Below, one piece after another: positions 15,262 to 29,919 of a DNA stretch of 64,000 nt. The position numbers and the translations under genes are program-made. How positions within the stretch are numbered: the stretch's first letter is position 1; each line of letters starts with the position of its first letter. The DNA is taken from positions 1 through 64,000 of the forward strand of contig NZ_AORI01000012.1 in assembly GCF_000367765.1 (NCBI RefSeq), read 5' to 3'. The notes below the pieces were generated by a model. That model was not told the origin of the DNA. It saw nothing but the letters and a program-made list of their open reading frames with translations, and ran no database searches. This DNA is from Metamycoplasma auris 15026 (GTDB lineage Bacteria; Bacillota_I; Bacilli_A; Mycoplasmatales; Metamycoplasmataceae).

Positions 15262-15290
15262 ATTAAAAAAATTAGGCCGAAGCCTAATCT
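15262..15290 (-). terminator. Terminator of the opp operon
   Basis: On the minus strand, ATTAGGC-TTCG-GCCTAAT is followed by a T-run. The TTCG tetraloop makes a stable hairpin. The oppF stop codon (15284-15286) lies inside the stem. Confidence 0.85.
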
Positions 15291-17824
15291 TCTTTTTTAT
15301 TGGATAAAACAGAAGTTCATTTTTTAATTTGGTCTTTTGTTCCGTATATATAGTGGTTATCTTCTGCTTTATAAACTTCAGGAATATTTGGGAATTGTTG
15401 TTCTTGAATGTAATCTAATTCAAATGAAACTTTGTGGAATTTTTCGTTAGCATTTGATATCTTAGGAATTGCTTTAAATAAACTAATTGTATATGGATGA
15501 AGAGGGTTGTTATAGATAGCTTCAGTTTGACCACTTTCTACAATTTTTCCAAGGTGCATAATTTGGACATTATCAGCAACATATTCAATCATACTTAAAT
15601 CATGTGCAATAAAGATTAATCCGATATTCTTTTGAATACATAAATCTTTAAGTAAGTTAACAACTTGGGCTTGAATTGAAATATCAAGTGAAGCAATTGG
15701 TTCATCGGCAACTATAACTTTAGGTTCGGTTATTAAAGCTCTTGCTATAACAATCCGTTGTAGCTGTCCGCCACTAAATTCATGTGGATATCTATAAGCA
15801 AATTGCTTTAGAAGCCCAACGTCTTCTAGTGAACGATAAATAGTCATCTTGTAAAGTAGCTCTGAGATTAGATATTTAGCAATTGGAAGTGAAATTTTAT
15901 AATCAAAGAAATTAAATCTTTTTGTTCATTTTGTATGGAATTGTTTACCATCTTTGGTTTGATTTTCATTTAAGATATTGTTTCTAATATTTAGCTCAAC
16001 TCATTTGTAATCAATGCCAAGTAAAACATAAATATTTTTTATATCTTTATTTAAATAATCTCTTTCAATCTTAAATGATTTTAGCGTATCTTCTTTTAGA
16101 GTGATATCTGAGTTGTACATCTTAAATGCAACATCATGATCTTTTTCAAGTTGCTTAGTTTTAAGAGTAATTTGTTTAATTCCTTTTTTTAGTTTTTCTT
16201 TATCAGCAGATTCATCCATTAATTTAGCTAATAAATCTTCTTTTGTTTTTTGCAATGCTGTAATTTTTTCATCAAAGGAATTTCTTAGGTGTAAAAAGAA
16301 TTCGTTTTTAAATTTTTTATATGCTTCATCACACATTGTTTGGGAGGAAACTAAAAATAAATACTCATCTTTTTCTTTTTTAATTTGTTCGTATAAATCA
16401 TTGATTTTTTGTTTGTAATCAACTAAGAAATTAGCTCTTCCTAAAAGATATTTTTCTTTTGATTTATTTAGATCTTCTTTAGCTTTTTGTAGCTCATCAA
16501 ACGAAACTTCAGGAGCTTCTTTAATTTGTAGTTCATTTTTAAGGTTTGAAATTTCTTCGTCAAGTTTTTTTAGTTTATCTTCAAACTGTTTGGCATTTTT
16601 TAATGAAATAGTTTGGTATTTAGAAAAATCAAAGTTGAATTTTGTATTAATTGTGTCTTTAATTTCTTGCTTGATTGTTTTTGAAAATTGAATAGCTGAA
16701 AGTTCTTTTTCATAGAAGTTTTTTACATATGCTTCAAGTTTTTTAACTAAATCTTTAATGTCTTCAAACTCTAAGTGTTTAAGGGTGCTTTTTAGACTTT
16801 TTAGCACTGCTACACGTTTTTGGAATAGATATTCATTTTTTAGATTATATGAATAGAATTCTAGGTTTGTTGACATTAATTTAGTGATATTAGTTAAACT
16901 TTTTTCATTCTTATTTTCAATGCAATAGTTAGAAAAAACATTTTGAGATTCTTTAATTTGGGAGTGGTAATTTGCAATTAAAGCTTTTCTTTTAGTCTGT
17001 AATTTAGCTAATTCTTTTTTTAGTTTAAATTGGTTTTTTGATATCTTACTTAATATTTTAACTTCTTCAAAACGTCTAATTGCTTTATTAAAGTTAGTTT
17101 CTTCAACAGTTAATTCTTGGTTACGATATTTAGATTGCATTTCATAATAATAATTAATCAATGTGGAAGCATTTGAATACATATTATTAATAATCAAGCT
17201 TTCCATTTTTTGCTTTTCTTCTAAATATGCATAGAAACTTGAGAAATTATCTTCAATGCTCAATTCTTTGTCAAATTTAAAGTTTTCAAATTTCTTTACT
17301 CAGAAACTAAAGAAAGGACGTGCTAAGTTATTAATTTCTTTAAGGTTTTCTAACTCAAGTTTCATTGCCTGAATTTGAAATGTATATTTAAATGTTTTTT
17401 TAACTTCAAGTCAATCACAAAAAATATCTTTGATTTTATTTTTCATAATACCATTAACTAAAAGAGGCTCTTTTAGAATGTTATAAACGTTTTGTTGACT
17501 ATTTAGCGAAGCGTGTGGATCTTGGAAGATCATTTGCACATTTTTACGTAAATATTTTTTTAATGTGTAACTTATGCTTTTTCCTGAAATAATTTTGTCA
17601 TCCAAAATTACAAAGCCATTATATTCATCATAAAGTCTTAAAAGAGTACGCCCTACTGTTGTTTTTCCTGAACCTGATTCCCCAATTAGCCCAACAATTT
17701 CACCTTCATGCACATCAAAAGAGACACCATCAACTGCTTTGTTGATAATACCGTTATTTATAAAATATTTTTTTAGATTGTCAATTGATAAAATAACTTT
17801 TTTATCTTTATTTGTCTGTCTCAT
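15284..17824 (-). CDS. oppF: Oligopeptide ABC transporter ATPase OppF, with large insertion
   Basis: An 846-residue OppF, against about 310-330 in most bacteria. The N-terminal part carries Walker A (GESGSGKTT) and the Q-loop (QMIFQDP); the C-terminal part carries the ABC signature FSGGQLQRI, Walker B (KVIVADEP) and the H-loop (IAHDLS). Between Q-loop and signature, at about residues 140-660, lies a roughly 500-residue Lys/Glu-rich segment with strong coiled-coil character and no hydrophobic helix. Oversized OppF proteins occur in some mycoplasmas; the role of the insert is unknown. The start overlaps the end of oppD by 17 nt. With OppD it powers peptide import through OppBC. Confidence 0.93.
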
Positions 17825-21444: not shown

Positions 21445-24298
21445 TTGAACCTCCTCTCTTTGTCTTTATTCTTCAATCAGCATAAATTGTTGCCCCAGTT
21501 GGTGAATCATCAGGAACAATAAAATGTTTTTGAACTAAGAAACGACCAAATTCATTTTTTTGTTTGAAATGACCATAGCTGAAATCAACGTTGAAGAATG
21601 TTGTAAATTCAGTCATTAATTTAATAGCTTCTTCATTTGTTAAGGATGAAATGTAGTTCAATCAGAATTGTGCTGATCAGGCATACATATCTGTTGGATG
21701 TTGTCCATTACTTGGACTTCATTTTTTAGGATTTCCCTTGTCATCTTTTTGAAGTACATAGTGACCTGAACTATCTTTTTTGAATTCAAACACTGTTGTT
21801 GTTGATAAACGTTGTCCCATGAAATCATTATGTACTAAATGAAGTTCTTTGAATGGAACTGAACCAACTCATTTATGTGCATCATTTTCTGAACGTTTTA
21901 CCATTTCAGTTGCTAGCTTATGAATTGAGGGAAAATGAGTCTTAAATGTTTTATTTTTGCCATCACTATCGTGAGCTGCAATTCAAGTTAATGTTGGTAC
22001 CAAGTTACCATTTCATGAAAGCCCATCATAACCTGAACCTATGGAATCATAGTCATATCCTCAAGAAACTAAATTAGTTCCATTAGCTCCACCAGTTCTA
22101 AATGCATCAAATTTAGGATCATCTTTGTTAACTGTTTGGAAAACTTTAAATTTAATTCTTGGGTTCAAGTCAGAAAATGTTTTTTCAATATTATTAAATG
22201 CTTCTTTGTAGGTTGCTGGAATATTAATATAAGGGAATAGATATTCGTATACAAAGTCTTGGCCTTTTAAATTTGGATTTTCTTTGTCGAACTTCTCAAA
22301 CAATTTTTTAATTTCGTCTTGAATTTGCTTAAATCCAGCTGATTTCAAACGATCATTTTTATTTGATATATTTTTTACATTATTATCGTTTACTGAAGGA
22401 AGAAGTTGTTCACTATCACCAAATTTCAGCTTAGAATTTCCATCTGATGAAATGGCAAATAGTGAGTTAATTTGTTCTTCAACATCTCCAGGTGTTTTTT
22501 CTTTAGCGCTATCTTGGTCTTTTCCACCAATGCTTGAACCATCAGCAATCTTAGCAAGTCAAGCTTTTCCACTTCCACCTGTAGCTTGGGATGCTAATTC
22601 ATTTCAGTTAATTGCAGCATTAAGAAGAGTTCTAAAAATTAGTCCATCTCCTGCAATGTATGATTGCGGATCATTAGTTCCTTTTGCTAATTCAGATCTA
22701 GTTCCCCCAAACATTAATTTTGCATAGGCATCATTAAATCCATAGAAATCTTCTTTGTTACCTTTTGGAAGAGATTTAATAAATGGTTGTAAGAAGACTC
22801 TGTAGAATGGATCTGTCTTGTTTAATCTTCTGCTGAAACGAAGTCCATAGTAAGAACTACGTTGCAAGATTTCAGATTGCTGTGCTGGTTTTAACTGACT
22901 GAAACTAATTTGGGAAACGCTTCCTTGTTTGTAATTGTTAAAACCAGTTCTTGCAAATGTATCTGGATCAGAATCAGTGTAGTATTTTTGAATAATTTCA
23001 TCAACAGTATCTTCTCTTTTTACTCATTCTTTGTCATAGTAGTATTTGTTTTTTCTTAATTTAAGCTCTTGACCTGTTTGTGGAAGAATGTAGTATGGAC
23101 CAATATAAAAAGTATTTTTTAAACTAACTCCATATCAATAAGAACCAGATATGTACATCAATGACTTTTTGTCTAGATTTCTTATTTTTTTCTCAAAAGC
23201 TTCTGTTTCATTAGTTTGTTTGCCAATGTAGCTATAAACTGGTAGTTTTTCTCCCTTTTGAGCAGCTTCATTTGTTGCATCAATATATTGTGAAGGAGCA
23301 GGTAGGAAAGTGTAATCTTTCATTATGGCAGAAACTAGGAATTTATTGAAATCAGTTTCTTCTTGTTTAACGCTTGCAAGTTTTTCAAAAGTAACTGCTT
23401 CTTGACCTTTAAATTGTCCATCAGCAACTCTTTGGATAAACTCATTTTCCTTACTAAACTTAGTGTAGTCAATTCCAAACAATGTAAAAATGTATTCGTT
23501 GCTATATTCTTGTCTTTCAGTTAGAATTACTGAGGATGGATCGGATAGAGCTTTTTGGGCTTCTTTGTCTAGTTCTTCGCTTCCACCATTATCAGCTCTA
23601 AACTCTGTTTTAATAGATAAAGTCTTTAATCATGAATAATAGAAATCTTTAGCTTGTGCTACATAAGGTTTGCCTTCTTTATTAAGAATAGGTTCACCAT
23701 CTTCACCAACTCAAGGAATATCTTTTCTTACAGTAAATTGAATCTTAGTTGCTTTCTTTAATTGCTCTTGGAATTCATCACTATTGATTGATCTTTTATT
23801 TTTAGATTTCAAATAAACAGATGGATTTTGGTAAACTTTAATTTTTTTACCATCAGGTAAAGATTCTTCTTTACTTTTTGTTTCATCCATGTCATAATCA
23901 TCTTGATCAAAAACATGAATTTTATTTTGCGAATCTGTAAGAATCACTGCAGAAGCTAGCCCTAATCTTTTAACTACAAAGGAAGGTTTTGTTAGATATG
24001 TTTTAATATCATAAATTCTTCCTCCGTTATCCTTTAAGTCGACATGTTTTACTTCTGGTTCATTCAATGACTCAAAGCGCAACAAACCTACAGAAGTGTG
24101 TTGACTAACTGAGCTATCTTGGAATGCACCATATGATCTAGAAGCATCCTGCGAAAAAGCTTGAGCATTATATGGGGAGCTATACTCAAAAACAAATCTC
24201 CTTAATCTTGGAGTAGTACATGAAATTACAAACAGAGGTATTGTAGCTGCCGACATTGCGAGGGCAGATAATAAGCTTATTTTACTTTTCTTTTTCAT
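21437..24298 (-). CDS. oppA: Oligopeptide-binding lipoprotein OppA
   Basis: A 953-residue lipoprotein with signal residues 1-27 (lipobox FVISC, Cys27). It is first in the operon, directly upstream of oppB, as expected for the substrate-binding subunit. Its length is close to that of mycoplasma OppA proteins and much larger than the ~540 residues of classical OppA. Segments such as SLKNTFYIGPYYIL and VSWGYDYDSIGSGYDG fit the solute-binding family 5 fold. M. hominis OppA is also reported to be an adhesin with ecto-ATPase activity; whether that applies here is not shown by sequence alone. GGAG precedes the ATG. Several UGA-coded Trp residues interrupt the frame under the standard code. Confidence 0.93.
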
Positions 24299-24864: not shown

Positions 24865-24879
24865 TATAGTAAAATTTTA

Positions 24880-24998
24880 TTAATTCAATCATAAGTTGAT
24901 TGGATTAACGCAAGTTAATATCTTATCCAAAGCTATATGCTTATTTCCCATGAATAATTAAAACTAGAATCCGCGGAGTCTAGTTTTTTCTTTTTTAT
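24880..24998 (+). ncRNA. Candidate small non-coding RNA
   Basis: An isolated, unusually structured stretch of about 115 nt between divergent units. A -10-like TATAGTAAAAT (24865-24875) precedes it. Inside are the inverted repeats CAATC/GATTG (24886-24902), ATTAAC-gcaa-GTTAAT, and AAGC/GCTT. It ends in a strong terminator hairpin AAAACTAGA/TCTAGTTTT with a T-run at 24983-24998. No start codon with ribosome site lies within it and the next gene is on the other strand. It does not show the conserved loop of 4.5S/SRP RNA and is too short for RNase P RNA or tmRNA. The terminator is clear; the identity of the RNA is unknown. Confidence 0.5.
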
Positions 24999-25046
24999 TT
25001 AATTAAGTAAGAAATATTTTGTTGATTTTTTAATAATAAAGAAACC

Positions 25047-25868
25047 TTATACTTTTTTAGTGGCAACGATTGCTATTACAATGATGATTAGAATAGCAAT
25101 AAAAATACCTAAAGCAATGCCTACTAATTTTCTAACATCAAGAAATTTAAAGTTTTTTTCTAGTGTTTCTTCGCTTTCTTTTGCTTTTTTTATTTTTTCT
25201 AGAAAATTAAGCGGCCCATCTGGCATTTTTTCTTGGTTAGAAAAGCCTTTCATTTTGTCATATTTTAAATATCGTTTAATTTCATTAAAAAACTCTTCGT
25301 TATTTTTAATCGATCAACCATATTTTCTATTGGACCGCGATGATGTTAGAATCTTATCGCAGTCCCCTTTTTTTCTTATATTTAAAGATAGTAAACAAGA
25401 TAAATATAATTCCTTTTTATCTTTTACTAATAAAGCGATTTCTTTATCTTTATTATTAGTATAGTTAATACCTGAATAAATGTCATTAAGTTTTGGAATT
25501 ATAATTTTATACATCTTATCAACTTTTGTAGAGGTTTCATTTTTTATTTTGATAAATAAAAGTAGATATTCCAATAAATTACAATAGACTAAACTTTTTC
25601 CTTCTTGATATTGAGGATACAAATTAATATTTGATTTTGAATTTAAATTTGGAATGTAATATTCATGAACATGGTGAATATAGAGTCCTTCATTTTCTTT
25701 GTTTATATTTTCATTGATTATAATATCCCCAAAATTAGAAATGCTAGCATATGATTCCTTAATTCCTCCATACTTTTTTCTTAAATAACTTACATACATA
25801 AAATAAGACATATTTAGTAAGTTATATATGACATTTGGATTGATTTTGGTTTCAGTTTTTTTCTCCAT
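25047..25868 (-). CDS. Tail-anchored HNH-like protein, copy 1
   Basis: A 273-residue protein, with one UGA-coded Trp in its middle. It has no signal peptide; a single hydrophobic helix at about residues 247-269 is followed by TKKV, so it is probably tail-anchored with the bulk in the cytosol. It is a paralogue of the next gene (25887-26648): both share KYGG, NEGL(Y/F)IH, LVYCNLLE, LNDIYSGI, and GWS...FFNE...KYDK. The segments EGLYIHHVHE and SLVYCNLLEYLLLFIKI resemble the His-His and NLVxLxxxEHxxxH parts of phage-type HNH nucleases, but here the second-site histidines are replaced by Tyr and Phe. The nuclease relation is an inference. It lies 18 nt downstream of its paralogue. Confidence 0.7.
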
Positions 25869-25886
25869 AATTTAGTACCTAAAGAC

Positions 25887-26648
25887 TTATTTTTTAATTA
25901 AAAATGTAACAATTAAGGCTCAGAATATTGCATTAAGAATAATTGTGCCAAAAACAATAAGAAAAAGTTTGGTTCTTATTCTTGTTTTTCAAGTGTCATC
26001 TTTTCGATTACCAGTTTCATAATCAACAAAAGAATTTACATAAGGTGATTTTCATCTAGCTAACTTATCATATTTAAAATACTCTTTCATTTCATTAAAA
26101 AAAGCCTCATTTTTTTGCTTCGATCAACCAATTTTTTCATTTTCTTTGGAAGATAATAAAAGAGCATCAACTTCATTTTTTAGATCAACTTTTAATTTAG
26201 ACAAACAAAATAAATAATCATCCTTATAATTTCTAACTAAACTAGCTGCTTTGTTTTTTCATTCTTCTTTATAAACTATTCCTGAATAAATATCATTAAG
26301 TTCAGGAATTAGTTGACTAAATAAATATCCACCGCTACGATTTGTAGCCTGTCAGATTTTAATATGAAGCACAAGATGCTCTAAAAGATTGCAATAAACT
26401 AAGTTACTTTCATCATCATATTCAGGATATTTTCTACTTACATCTGCCCTTGTTAATCAATCAATGTTCATTTCTTTTTTATTATGAATAAAAAGACCTT
26501 CATTTCTTATAAAAGAAAAGTCATTCATTCTAAAATTACCTTCATTATCAAAACTTAAAATAGGTTTTGAAACACCGCCATATTTATGTCGCAAATAGCT
26601 AATACACTGCTCATAATTTAATTCCAAAAGTTCTTTTATTTCAGTCAT
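25887..26648 (-). CDS. Tail-anchored HNH-like protein, copy 2
   Basis: A 253-residue paralogue of the 25047-25868 protein, with a C-terminal hydrophobic helix at about residues 228-250 ending LIKK. Here the first motif reads EGLFIHNKKE, one His of the HH pair being lost, while the second reads NLVYCNLLEHLVLHIKI, keeping both His residues. The two copies therefore preserve complementary halves of an HNH-like pattern. TATAAT lies 7 nt upstream of the ATG, with no ribosome site, which suggests a leaderless message starting a two-gene unit. Divergently oriented to the large helicase/nuclease gene. The function is inferred only from motif resemblance and context. Confidence 0.7.
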
Positions 26649-26655
26649 ATTTTTA

Positions 26656-26661
26656 ATTATA
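26656..26661 (-). promoter_or_regulatory. -10 box of the HNH-like gene pair
   Basis: TATAAT on the minus strand lies 7 nt upstream of the ATG at 26648. No Shine-Dalgarno sequence is seen. It sits in the 190-bp divergent region shared with the helicase gene at 26839. Confidence 0.5.
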
Positions 26662-26838
26662 TTAATTTTTTTATTTCCTTCTTTAATCTAAGAAAACTAA
26701 CAAAGAAATTTCAAGAAAATAACTAAGAAAATTAAGGCTTTTTAAAAGCTTAAAAAGCTTACAAAAAACTTCTTATTTTTTATTCTCTTAAGTTTAAAAT
26801 TTAATATAGAAAGGTTTTAATAAGACTTTATTTTTATT

Positions 26839-29808
26839 ATGGAAATTAATCTTAGCTTTGAACAAGAAGAATTTATTAAGCTAGCCCTAGAAGGAAATAA
26901 TATTTTAGTTGATGCTTGCATTGGTAGTGGTAAGACTACTTCAATTCAGATGTTGTGCGATAAGTATTCTAAAGAAAAAAGAATTTTGTATCTTACATAT
27001 AGCAAATTATTAAAATTTGATGCAAAGCAAAAAATCAAATCAAGCAATACTTCTGTTTTTTCATTTCATGGTTTTGCTTATTATATGTTAAAACAAAATG
27101 GCATTAATAGTTCTAATGACAATGCAATTAAGCTTTATTTAGCAAATCAAATTATTCCCTTAAAATACGATGTGTTAATCATTGATGAATATCAAGATAT
27201 TGATACTGAAATGTCTAATTTACTTCTAAGCATTAAAAAGCAAAATCCAAATATTCAAATTATTGCTGTTGGGGATATGGACCAAAAGATTTTTGATAAA
27301 ACTACTTTAGATATTAAAGAATTTATTACTTCCTTTTTAGATTCACATATTAAATTATCTTTTACATTTTCATATCGAATTTCTAACAATCATGCGGCTA
27401 TGTTGGGGCGGATTTGAAATAAAGAAATTAATGGCATCAATGATGAATGCAAGATTGAATATAAAGATGCGTCACAAGCTCTTAAATTCCTAATTGAACA
27501 AAATCCGTCTGAAATTCTTTGTTTAGGTTCAAGAAATGGTCTTATGACTAGAGTTTTAAATATTCTTGAAGAAGTAGCAACGCATAAATGAAATAAAAAA
27601 ACTGTGTATGCTAGCATTAAAGATGTTGACCAAAATGTCAAACCCAATAGTGATACAGCAATTTTTACAACATATGATAGTGCTAAGGGACTTGAAAAAC
27701 CAATTTGTTTAGTTTTTGATTTTAGCGAACAATATTGAAATTTGCGTTTGAATCATCTTGATAGCAAATATGAAATTTTAAGAAATGTTTTTTGTGTCGC
27801 TGCTAGCCGTGGAAAAAATCATATTATTTTTGTACATTCTCAATTTGAAAACCCATTAACTGAAGAAATTTTAAGGATTTCTAACAATAATAAAGATAAG
27901 AAATCTCAAAATACATATTTAATATCAGAAATGTTTGATCATAAATATGAAGAAGATTTAACAAAACTATATAGTTATTTAGAAATAAAAGAGGTTGAAA
28001 CGGCAAATAATTTAATTATTGATATCAAAACAAATGATGATTTAATTGATTTGTCTCCTTGTATTGGTGTATATCAAGAAGCTTTGTATTTTAATCAATA
28101 TAAAATTGAGAATGAAATAAATAAGTATCTTGAAGTTGAAAATGAAAAATATTGGATTGATTATTACAAGAAATTTAATGCAAATAACAATCGTTCAATC
28201 AATGAACTTATTTTGTTTTTTATTGCCTTGCAAACTAAACAACAAAGATATATCAAACAAACAAATATTGAATTTGTTAATGAATTTGAAAAACTAGCAA
28301 TTAATAATCGTCTAAAAACTTTGTTTACTAAAGATGAAAATGTGCAAGTTAGCTGCCATATTGCTTTTGAAAAAGATAAAAATAATCTAGAAATATTTGC
28401 AATCGGTTTAGCTGATGTGCTTATGGATAATGTCGTTTATGAACTTAAATTTGTAAATGAATTAAAGAATACACATTTCTTGCAAACTGCAGCTTATATG
28501 CTTGCACTAGGTTTGCAAAAAGGAATGCTATGAAATGTTCGCAATAATCAGCTTTTTGAAATTAGAATCAAAAATAAGGATGAATTTAAAAAATACATTG
28601 CATATACAATTACCAAACATAGATATCTTATTGATAAGAATATTGAATTAGAAAACAATAATGATTCAATGCTTGATACTAAAAATGAATTATCAAATTC
28701 TTCAAATTCAAATGATTTAATTGATAATAGTAAGACTGTAACTTTATATACTAAGTTCAATGATATTGATACCTCAAACAGCAATATTGAAAACGAATTC
28801 AATTTTGCTGTTATTGACGTCGAAACTAACTTTTTTGATAAGGTTATTTCAATTGGAGTAGTAATAGCAAAAAGCAATGATTTTAAAGTAGTTGATACTA
28901 ACTATTGAATAATCAAGGAAAATTCAAAATTTCCTGCAATATATAGCAAAAGCCTACTGGGACCGCTATGCAGATATGACCATTATACCGGTTATGATAT
29001 TGAAACATATGACTTAGCAATTGAAAAATTGATTGATTTTTTAAATAAGTACAATGTAAAACATTGATTTTCATACACATCCTTTGATTATAGACATCTT
29101 CCAAAATTAAGCAATATCTTTCAATATCATGATATTTCAATCGTTGCTAAAAACAAAAATTTCAATGATTTTATTCCAGATTATTTTGAAACTTTTAGAA
29201 ATGGTGCTCTAAAAAGAGGTTATGGAGCAGAATCAATATATCGTCTTGTCACAAAAAATGATGAGTATTTTGAAACTCATAATGGTCTAATTGATGCGAT
29301 TGATGAATTAATAATCATGTATGCTTTAGAGTTAGATATTGAATCATTCATACAAAATAAAAGATTAAAGAAAAAAAGAGGAGACATTGATAAATATATT
29401 GAAACAAATTTTAGTATCAACCTTATATTAAATAAAATAAAAAATAAAAATTCAAATAATATTAAATATTCTAATAGAAATACTAATGAAACTAACCTGC
29501 TAGTTTATAACAGACTAAAAGATGGTTATATAGATACTAAAGATAGTAATGTTTCTGATGAATCAAATAATAAAAGATATCTAGATGATACCAATTTAAA
29601 ACAAAAAGAAAATAATTATATTAATACATCTAAAATTAATTTTCCAATACAAAAAAAGACTAGTCCAAAAAATCCTCATATAAATATTAAAAGCAAAAAG
29701 AAGCTTAGCAAGAATACAAAAAATGACCTTATTAAATTAATAATTGTTATTCCTATTGCAGTTATTGTACTTATTATTTTTCTTGCTATTCACTATTCTA
29801 GAAAGTAG
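26839..29808 (+). CDS. Tail-anchored SF1 helicase, PD-(D/E)XK nuclease and DEDDh exonuclease fusion
   Basis: A 989-residue protein built of four parts. Residues 1-380 are a UvrD-like SF1 helicase: Walker A GSGKTT (29-34), Walker B IIDEYQD (114-120), motif III VGDMDQ, motif V TTYDSAKGLE (277-286) and motif VI VAASRGKN (320-327). Residues about 440-610 carry a RecB/Cas4-like PD-(D/E)XK pattern: GLAD (Asp526), ELK (Glu535, Lys537) and Q549-x3-Y553. Residues about 655-830 are a DnaQ-like exonuclease: Asp660 and Glu662 in IDVET, Asp750, and His814-x4-Asp819. After a low-complexity Asn/Lys/Ser linker comes one hydrophobic helix (about 963-984) ending HYSRK. It starts divergently from the two HNH-like genes, which are also tail-anchored. 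I know of no named system with this architecture. Confidence 0.85.
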
Positions 29809-29886: not shown

Positions 29887-29919
29887 TTTTTTTATTTTTA
29901 GATTTCTTCTATAGAATTA

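What the first reader, a model, noticed from the sequence alone, without database searches (positions are those of the whole stretch)
25047..29808. A three-gene, tail-anchored DNA-processing cluster between the opp operon and the rRNA operon
Two HNH-like paralogues and, divergently, a helicase/nuclease/exonuclease fusion each end in a single C-terminal membrane helix with a short basic tail. Shared topology suggests that all three sit on the inner face of the membrane. Neighbours are housekeeping genes, so the cluster looks like a self-contained module. It could degrade incoming DNA (phage, plasmid or scavenged), process imported nucleic acid, or perform membrane-linked recombination repair; mollicutes usually lack RecBCD/AddAB. 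I know of no named system with this composition. The fold calls rest on motifs I can see; the function is inference.
Basis: partly seen in the sequence, partly recalled or inferred. Interest (0 to 1): 0.88.

Follow-up and report, generated by a model that had tools for sequence, protein, structure and literature searches.

The report
Membrane-tethered helicase-nuclease with tethered partners
This mycoplasma carries a horizontally acquired DNA-shredding enzyme (helicase, nuclease and exonuclease in one protein) pinned to the cell membrane by its tail, next to two smaller tail-pinned proteins of an unstudied family whose predicted active sites are partly lost; it is most likely a barrier to incoming phage or plasmid DNA, which nobody has tested.

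Summary
The three genes exist as described, and they are the only tail-anchor-like proteins among 40 window ORFs. The 989-aa protein is an SF1/UvrD-like helicase, a Cas4/RecB-like PD-(D/E)XK nuclease and a DEDDh exonuclease with a C-terminal membrane helix; all catalytic motifs are intact. It is not unique: the fusion is common in Clostridia (about 50% identical), usually alone, with a C-terminal membrane helix (3) or a short MinD-like basic amphipathic tail (7). Mycoplasma copies form one clade.

The two 'HNH-like' genes belong to NCBIfam SAV1803_dom. HNH homology is unproven, and each copy has lost histidines conserved in nearly all 29 relatives.

The cluster is not a conserved operon: it fills a variable site that lacks it in the nearest relative. 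Yet across 135 family genomes, membrane-anchored SAV1803 proteins occur only in the three that also have a membrane-anchored helicase/exonuclease (Fisher p = 1e-5, uncorrected for phylogeny).

Best reading: an accessory, membrane-tethered 'mini-RecB' that degrades DNA as it enters, with tethered partners of unknown role. Defence is inferred, not shown. New variant of a known kind.

The parts
26839..29808 (+). 989-aa fusion (P0003): SF1/UvrD-like helicase + PD-(D/E)XK nuclease + DEDDh exonuclease + C-terminal membrane anchor
26839..27888 (+). helicase domain (aa 1-350): Walker A GSGKT 29-33, DEYQD 116-120, GDMDQ 145-149, SRG 323-325; catalytic residues invariant or nearly so in 27 homologues
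   Evidence: Foldseek best matches PcrA/UvrD/Rep, AdnAB, FBH1, Gabija
28276..28629 (+). PD-(D/E)XK nuclease domain (about aa 480-597): D526, E535-x-K537, Q549-x3-Y553 (Cas4/RecB-type QxxxY)
28801..29358 (+). DEDDh exonuclease domain (aa 655-840): D660, E662, D750, H814, D819
   Evidence: a homologous stand-alone copy matches Pfam Rv2179c-like 3'-5' exonuclease at 1.6e-4, below that family's cut-off
29713..29802 (+). C-terminal transmembrane helix (aa 959-988) after a Lys-rich, disordered linker (aa 859-958)
   Evidence: similar Lys-rich stretch plus helix in G021, G084, G093
25887..26648 (-). P0002, SAV1803_dom protein, 253 aa, tail-anchored
26355..26501 (-). P0002 conserved core (aa 50-98): H55 kept, H56 replaced by N (the only one of 29), H91 and H95 kept
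25896..25967 (-). P0002 C-terminal transmembrane helix (aa 228-251)
25047..25868 (-). P0001, SAV1803_dom protein, 273 aa, tail-anchored; sister copy of P0002, 18 bp downstream
25062..25130 (-). P0001 C-terminal transmembrane helix (aa 247-269)
26649..26838 (.). 190-bp divergent intergenic region between P0002 and P0003
29823..29861 (.). terminator-like hairpin (17 pairs, T-runs on both sides) between the 3' ends of P0003 and the 23S gene; the scan reports it on the - strand
   Evidence: sequence
24866..25000 (+). conserved structured RNA-like element marking the left edge of the insertion; not part of the module

Best explanation
An accessory, horizontally acquired DNA-degrading machine held on the inner face of the membrane. 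The SF1 helicase unwinds a DNA end, the Cas4/RecB-like nuclease and the DEDDh exonuclease degrade the strands, and the C-terminal helix on a ~100-residue flexible Lys-rich tether confines this to the membrane, where phage, plasmid or conjugative DNA enters as linear or single-stranded DNA while the chromosome is mostly spared. The two tail-anchored SAV1803 proteins, which have lost conserved histidines and are probably not ordinary nucleases, would be membrane partners (sensing, DNA capture or recruitment). Shown by sequence and comparison: the architecture, intact motifs, tail anchors, patchy distribution, fusion shared with Clostridia, co-occurrence of the anchored forms. Inferred: enzymatic activity, orientation (positive-inside rule), the partnership, and defence as the purpose.
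For: Intact helicase, PD-(D/E)XK and DEDDh residues in nearly all homologues. Membrane tethering recurs: C-terminal helix in 3 Clostridial fusions (L031, L042, L056; two of them with an added HTH_17 domain), in G084 and G093 fusions and on the separate exonuclease of G021; a basic tail such as KRKRGILSWLFGDRRD or KKGIWSRVFGKKKSRG in 7 others and in none of the other ORFs of those loci (pattern written after seeing the tails). Anchored SAV1803 only where an anchored helicase/exonuclease exists: 3/3, Fisher p = 1e-5 over 135 genomes. Accessory behaviour: 15 of 135 genomes, decayed copies (G083, G068, G066, G067), up to three copies (G068), placement in a variable site. The genome has its own PcrA/UvrD. 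Immediate neighbours of Clostridial copies include pPIWI-RE, type IV and type I restriction enzymes and JetD. UvrD-Cas4-like fusions are predicted components of defence systems (PMC5704561), and SNIPE shows that a membrane-bound nuclease can cut phage DNA during injection (PMC13190303).
Against: No activity or phenotype data. Most Clostridial neighbours are housekeeping genes and no baseline for the defence hits could be run. Many Clostridial copies have no membrane tail, and the Mesomycoplasma helicase-exonuclease pairs have no membrane helix. The co-occurrence rests on only two lineages. G084 has the anchored fusion and no SAV1803 gene.
Confidence: 0.45

Rival explanations
1. Two unrelated accessory genes in one hot spot: the helicase fusion and the SAV1803 pair landed side by side by chance in a variable region and do not work together.
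For: Unlinked in G021 and G093, no SAV1803 gene near any Clostridial fusion; the opp-rRNA junction is variable in the genus (0.6-5.6 kb, different genes); SAV1803 genes elsewhere sit in many contexts without this helicase.
Against: Anchored forms co-occur 3/3; tail anchors are otherwise almost absent near these genes.
Confidence: 0.25
2. A repair enzyme: the fusion replaces the missing AddAB in end resection for recombination, with membrane attachment reflecting a membrane-linked replication or segregation site.
For: AddA-like order helicase-then-nuclease; no AddA above cut-off in this genome; mollicutes lack RecJ, RecG and mostly PriA (PMC1193525); FBH1, AdnAB and RecBCD among structural matches.
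Against: Absent from about 89% of family genomes; no AddB/RecC-like partner seen; membrane tethering and duplication/decay do not suggest a core repair role.
Confidence: 0.15
3. Processing of imported or scavenged nucleic acid at the membrane for nucleotide salvage or transformation.
For: Membrane location and exonucleases fit; mycoplasmas depend on imported nucleotides (general knowledge).
Against: An ATP-driven helicase is costly for salvage; the family is commonest in Clostridia; patchy distribution.
Confidence: 0.1
4. A gene carried by phages or mobile elements (replication, recombination or exclusion of rivals) left behind in chromosomes.
For: Two of the full-length homologues are on viral contigs; SAV1803 relatives occur on plasmids and viral contigs.
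Against: No phage genes around the cluster; only weak helicase matches in 50,697 phage records; no conserved neighbours.
Confidence: 0.05

Closest known systems
UvrD-Cas4-like helicase-nuclease fusions (PMC5704561)
   Same: UvrD-like SF1 helicase fused to a Cas4/RecB-type PD-(D/E)XK nuclease in one protein; often stand-alone; linked there to defence
   Different: Here a DEDDh exonuclease and a membrane tail follow; no type III R-M or Dcm/Vsr context at the window gene; whether it is the same clade was not tested
AddA / RecB / AdnAB helicase-nucleases
   Same: Helicase followed by a C-terminal QxxxY nuclease; structural similarity to AdnAB and RecB
   Different: About half the length of AddA before the exonuclease, no AddB/RecC partner, no AddA-level score, extra DEDDh domain, membrane tail
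SNIPE, membrane-bound GIY-YIG nuclease (PMC13190303)
   Same: A nuclease held at the inner membrane; homologues swap different membrane-targeting parts
   Different: SNIPE has N-terminal membrane parts, DUF4041 and GIY-YIG; here C-terminal anchors, a helicase and two other nucleases
Gabija GajB helicase
   Same: UvrD-like helicase; GajB profiles match all 27 homologues aligned
   Different: Match confined to helicase motifs; no GajA found beside the gene; GajB has no nuclease fusion or anchor
SAV1803-related proteins (NCBIfam NF053682)
   Same: P0001 and P0002 pass the curated cut-off; SAV1803 itself is a conserved hypothetical at the edge of the S. aureus vSa-beta island (PMC6805111)
   Different: Most relatives are soluble; only the mycoplasma copies in G000, G021 and G093 have a C-terminal membrane helix, and the window copies lack conserved histidines

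Membership tests
UvrD-Cas4-like helicase-nuclease fusion | UvrD-like SF1 helicase motifs | tested here: met
UvrD-Cas4-like helicase-nuclease fusion | Fused RecB/Cas4-type PD-(D/E)XK nuclease with QxxxY | tested here: met
   D526, E535, K537, Q549, Y553; Cas4 profile 0.0042
UvrD-Cas4-like helicase-nuclease fusion | Nuclease of the pfam12705 branch and monophyly with published fusions | not tested
   Pfam reports PDDEXK_3, not pfam12705; no published sequences were aligned
AddA (AddAB) | Score above the addA_Gpos cut-off (707.65 bits) | tested here: not met
   Best genome match 56.7 bits, on the PcrA/UvrD gene
Gabija | GajA (OLD-family nuclease) next to GajB | tested here: not met
   Neighbours are SAV1803 genes, opp and rRNA; no PADLOC match for P0001/P0002
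SNIPE | GIY-YIG nuclease with DUF4041 | tested here: not met
   No such Pfam match in any of the three proteins
SNIPE | Nuclease held at the inner membrane | tested here: inconclusive
   Hydropathy and model predict anchors; localisation not measured
SAV1803-related family (NF053682) | Score above the curated cut-off of 40 bits | tested here: met
   98.9 and 83.8 bits
HNH endonucleases | Detectable homology to HNH profiles | tested here: not met
   hhalign probability 1.3% and 2.1%; no Pfam HNH match among the scanned SAV1803 members
HNH endonucleases | Complete His active site in P0001 and P0002 | tested here: not met
   P0002 H56N; P0001 Y and F at the H91 and H95 positions; these positions are conserved in 28/29, 27/29 and 27/29
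HNH endonucleases | beta-beta-alpha arrangement around the histidines | tested here: inconclusive
   Model order strand 52-56, strand 83-86, helix 88-102, but no structural match in PDB
DEDDh exonucleases | D-x-E, D, H-x4-D motifs | tested here: met
   Kept in the 18 homologues that have the domain

The most novel reading that the evidence does not exclude
A previously undescribed defence system: a single-protein helicase-nuclease-exonuclease tethered to the membrane (by a transmembrane tail in some lineages, a MinD-like amphipathic tail in others) that destroys DNA as it enters, teamed in some mycoplasmas with membrane-anchored SAV1803 proteins that have turned from nucleases into sensors or recruiters.
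Probability: 0.3. Interest if true: 0.85.

Novelty: new variant of a known kind. Interest (0 to 1): 0.62.

Why it matters
If true, location at the membrane would be how a broad DNA-degrading enzyme tells invader from self, a principle shown so far for SNIPE and proposed for Zorya and Kiwa, now with a RecB-like engine. It would also give a function to the unstudied SAV1803 family, which marks the edge of a major S. aureus genomic island, and show how mollicutes, which lack RecBCD/AddAB, deal with free DNA ends.

Tried and rejected
HNH assignment of P0001/P0002: Pfam, PDB profile search, Foldseek and hhalign against two HNH alignments all failed; kept only as a motif resemblance, with one SNF2-helicase-SAV1803 fusion (G449) as indirect support. 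Conserved operon: rejected by synteny. Fusion unique to mycoplasma: rejected. Gabija, AddA and SNIPE membership: rejected. A general hydrophobic-moment score for the amphipathic tails did not separate them from background (24 of 240 soluble ORFs also passed); only a pattern written after seeing the tails did, so that claim is weak. Phage origin: little support. Papers: nothing found on this three-domain architecture or on tail-anchored helicase-nucleases.
Full report
Observation. Under genetic code 4 the window holds three intact genes at the stated coordinates: P0001 (25047-25868, -, 273 aa), P0002 (25887-26648, -, 253 aa) and P0003 (26839-29808, +, 989 aa). The neighbours are the opp operon (oppA starts at 24298, -) and a 23S-16S rRNA operon (23S ends at 29919, -). 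P0001 and P0002 are 18 bp apart; P0002 and P0003 diverge from a 190-bp gap. Each protein has a single hydrophobic segment at its very C terminus. With one hydropathy rule (last 45 residues >=1.9, rest <1.7) exactly these three of 40 window ORFs qualify. The same rule picked six of 226 ORFs around relatives: five members of these two families and one ORF that I take to be spurious.

The large protein. Pfam finds an SF1 helicase (AAA_19, 3.6e-13) and a PD-(D/E)XK nuclease (PDDEXK_3, 1.7e-4); PADLOC finds GajB-type UvrD helicase motifs and, weakly, Cas4. The relatives P0004 and L042 also pass the UvrD-helicase cut-off. AlphaFold2 on 27 homologues (mean pLDDT 77.6) gives confident helicase, nuclease and exonuclease domains, low-confidence linkers at 600-650 and 859-960, and a final helix at 959-988. 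Foldseek places the helicase with PcrA, UvrD, Rep, AdnAB, FBH1 and Gabija. All 27 homologues keep the Walker A, DExQD, GDxxQ and motif VI residues, PD-(D/E)XK residues are kept in 26-27 of 27, and all 18 that have the exonuclease keep its D, E, D and final D. A stand-alone homologue of the exonuclease matches Pfam Rv2179c-like 3'-5' exonucleases at 1.6e-4, below that family's cut-off.

Where the fusion occurs. A scan of 84,980 species genomes found close to 40 near-full-length relatives at roughly 41-52% identity, nearly all Clostridia, one Solobacterium and one Mesomycoplasma ovipneumoniae, and two viral contigs. About half carry the exonuclease in the same protein. They have no conserved neighbours and no SAV1803 gene within reach. 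In 135 genomes of the window's family, full-length or decayed copies occur in 15: G000 (the window), G021, ten genomes of the Mesomycoplasma-like genus g6, and G083, G084, G093. In G021 and most g6 genomes the exonuclease is a separate gene directly downstream; in G000, G084 and G093 it is one protein of 959-996 aa. Mycoplasma copies are one clade (support 1.00), nested among the others with the Solobacterium copy as sister (0.92).

Membrane tails. A C-terminal membrane helix is present in G000, G084, G093, on the separate exonuclease of G021, and in Clostridial L031, L042 and L056. L031 and L042 also have an HTH_17 domain before the helix. Seven other Clostridial fusions end in a short basic pattern such as KRKRGILSWLFGDRRD, KKKDLFKRIFNRKKK or KKGIWSRVFGKKKSRG, which resembles the MinD membrane-targeting tail as I remember it; a pattern written after seeing these hits seven family members and none of the other ORFs in the same loci. 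A general amphipathicity score did not separate them from background. At least five Clostridial fusions have no tail, and the g6 exonucleases end in Lys/Ser/Thr-rich stretches. Tethering is therefore recurrent but not universal.

The small proteins. Both belong to NCBIfam SAV1803_dom, found in 7 of 135 family genomes and 15 of 395 genomes of the class, and on Firmicute plasmids and viral contigs. Contexts vary: beside a C5-methyltransferase, GHKL ATPase, Z1 and DUF4420 set in G091 and, by my reading of the sequence only, an HsdR-like gene in G033; SAV1803 itself is at the edge of the S. aureus vSa-beta island (PMC6805111). One relative is fused to an SNF2-type helicase (G449). In 29 aligned sequences, H55, E59, C86 and E90 are invariant (P0002 numbering), H56 is kept in 28, H91 and H95 in 27 each. 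P0002 is the single exception at H56 (N); P0001 has Y and F at the H91 and H95 positions; the G021 copy has R at H91 (alignment). The order strand-strand-helix around these residues in the P0002 model looks like HNH, but no library, PDB search, Foldseek search or profile comparison supports homology. I treat them as HNH-like in motif only, and the window copies as probably inactive as nucleases or changed in function.

Linkage and co-occurrence. Adjacency is seen only in the window. In the nearest relative found, G021, the same opp-rRNA junction is 987 bp and lacks the cluster, while its helicase/exonuclease and SAV1803 genes lie about 440 kb apart; the junction varies from 0.6 to 5.6 kb among ten genomes and holds other genes such as a dCMP-deaminase-like gene or an IS30-like transposase (gene names there are my reading). 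However, the three genomes with membrane-anchored SAV1803 proteins (G000, G021, G093) are three of the four with a membrane-anchored helicase/exonuclease (Fisher p = 1e-5). Helicase copies without an anchor never co-occur with SAV1803. This is the best evidence that the two anchored families work together, but it rests on two lineages and the test ignores phylogeny.

Function. The chemistry is that of DNA-end processing. The genome has its own PcrA/UvrD and nothing above the AddA cut-off. The gene is patchy, sometimes duplicated (up to three copies in G068) and sometimes decayed, as expected of an accessory gene. Among 80 immediate neighbours of Clostridial copies there are strong hits to pPIWI-RE, type IV and type I restriction enzymes and JetD, but most are housekeeping genes and no baseline was available. 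UvrD-Cas4-like fusions have been linked to defence (PMC5704561), and SNIPE shows that membrane location can direct a nuclease to injected phage DNA (PMC13190303). I therefore favour membrane-located destruction of incoming DNA at 0.45, coincidence of unrelated genes at 0.25, and repair at 0.15.

Verdict. What is new is the three-domain helicase-nuclease-exonuclease with recurrent membrane tails, and its co-occurrence with membrane-anchored, active-site-degraded SAV1803 proteins.

Noticed in passing
window 24866-25000 (+): Unannotated structured RNA-like element: TATAAT-like box, conserved core GGATTAAC-TAGTTAATGTCTTATCC, hairpins with compensatory changes (9 of 33 pairs) and a terminator; found in at least 8 genomes of the genus, in several within about 0.9 kb of oppA; no Rfam match at the gathering score.
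   Followed up: partly
window 15284-17824 (-): OppF (846 aa) appears to carry an insert of several hundred residues between its Walker A and ABC signature regions (read).
   Followed up: no
opp-rRNA junction in G000, G001, G006, G009, G010, G011, G015, G016, G020, G021 (L258-L266): Variable site of 0.6-5.6 kb beside an rRNA operon holding different genes in different species; a possible insertion hot spot.
   Followed up: partly
L155, L157, L158, L161, L162 (genus g6): A second helicase-nuclease copy without exonuclease, in the same genomic neighbourhood in each, ending in the hydrophobic-basic tail KKRSWSIWKLLRINKLLIWIKNLL or close variants.
   Followed up: no
L192 (G449): SAV1803 domain fused to the C terminus of an SNF2-type helicase in an open frame of about 1000 aa.
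   Followed up: no
L168 (G091): SAV1803 gene directly beside a C5-methyltransferase, HATPase_c_3, Z1-domain and DUF4420 gene set, resembling a MORC-type restriction system.
   Followed up: partly
L165, L166, L174, L175 (G129, G132, G113, G004): A more distant family of roughly 890-945 aa helicase proteins in other mycoplasmas matches the same profile; two of them end in a DEDDh-like H-x4-D motif.
   Followed up: no
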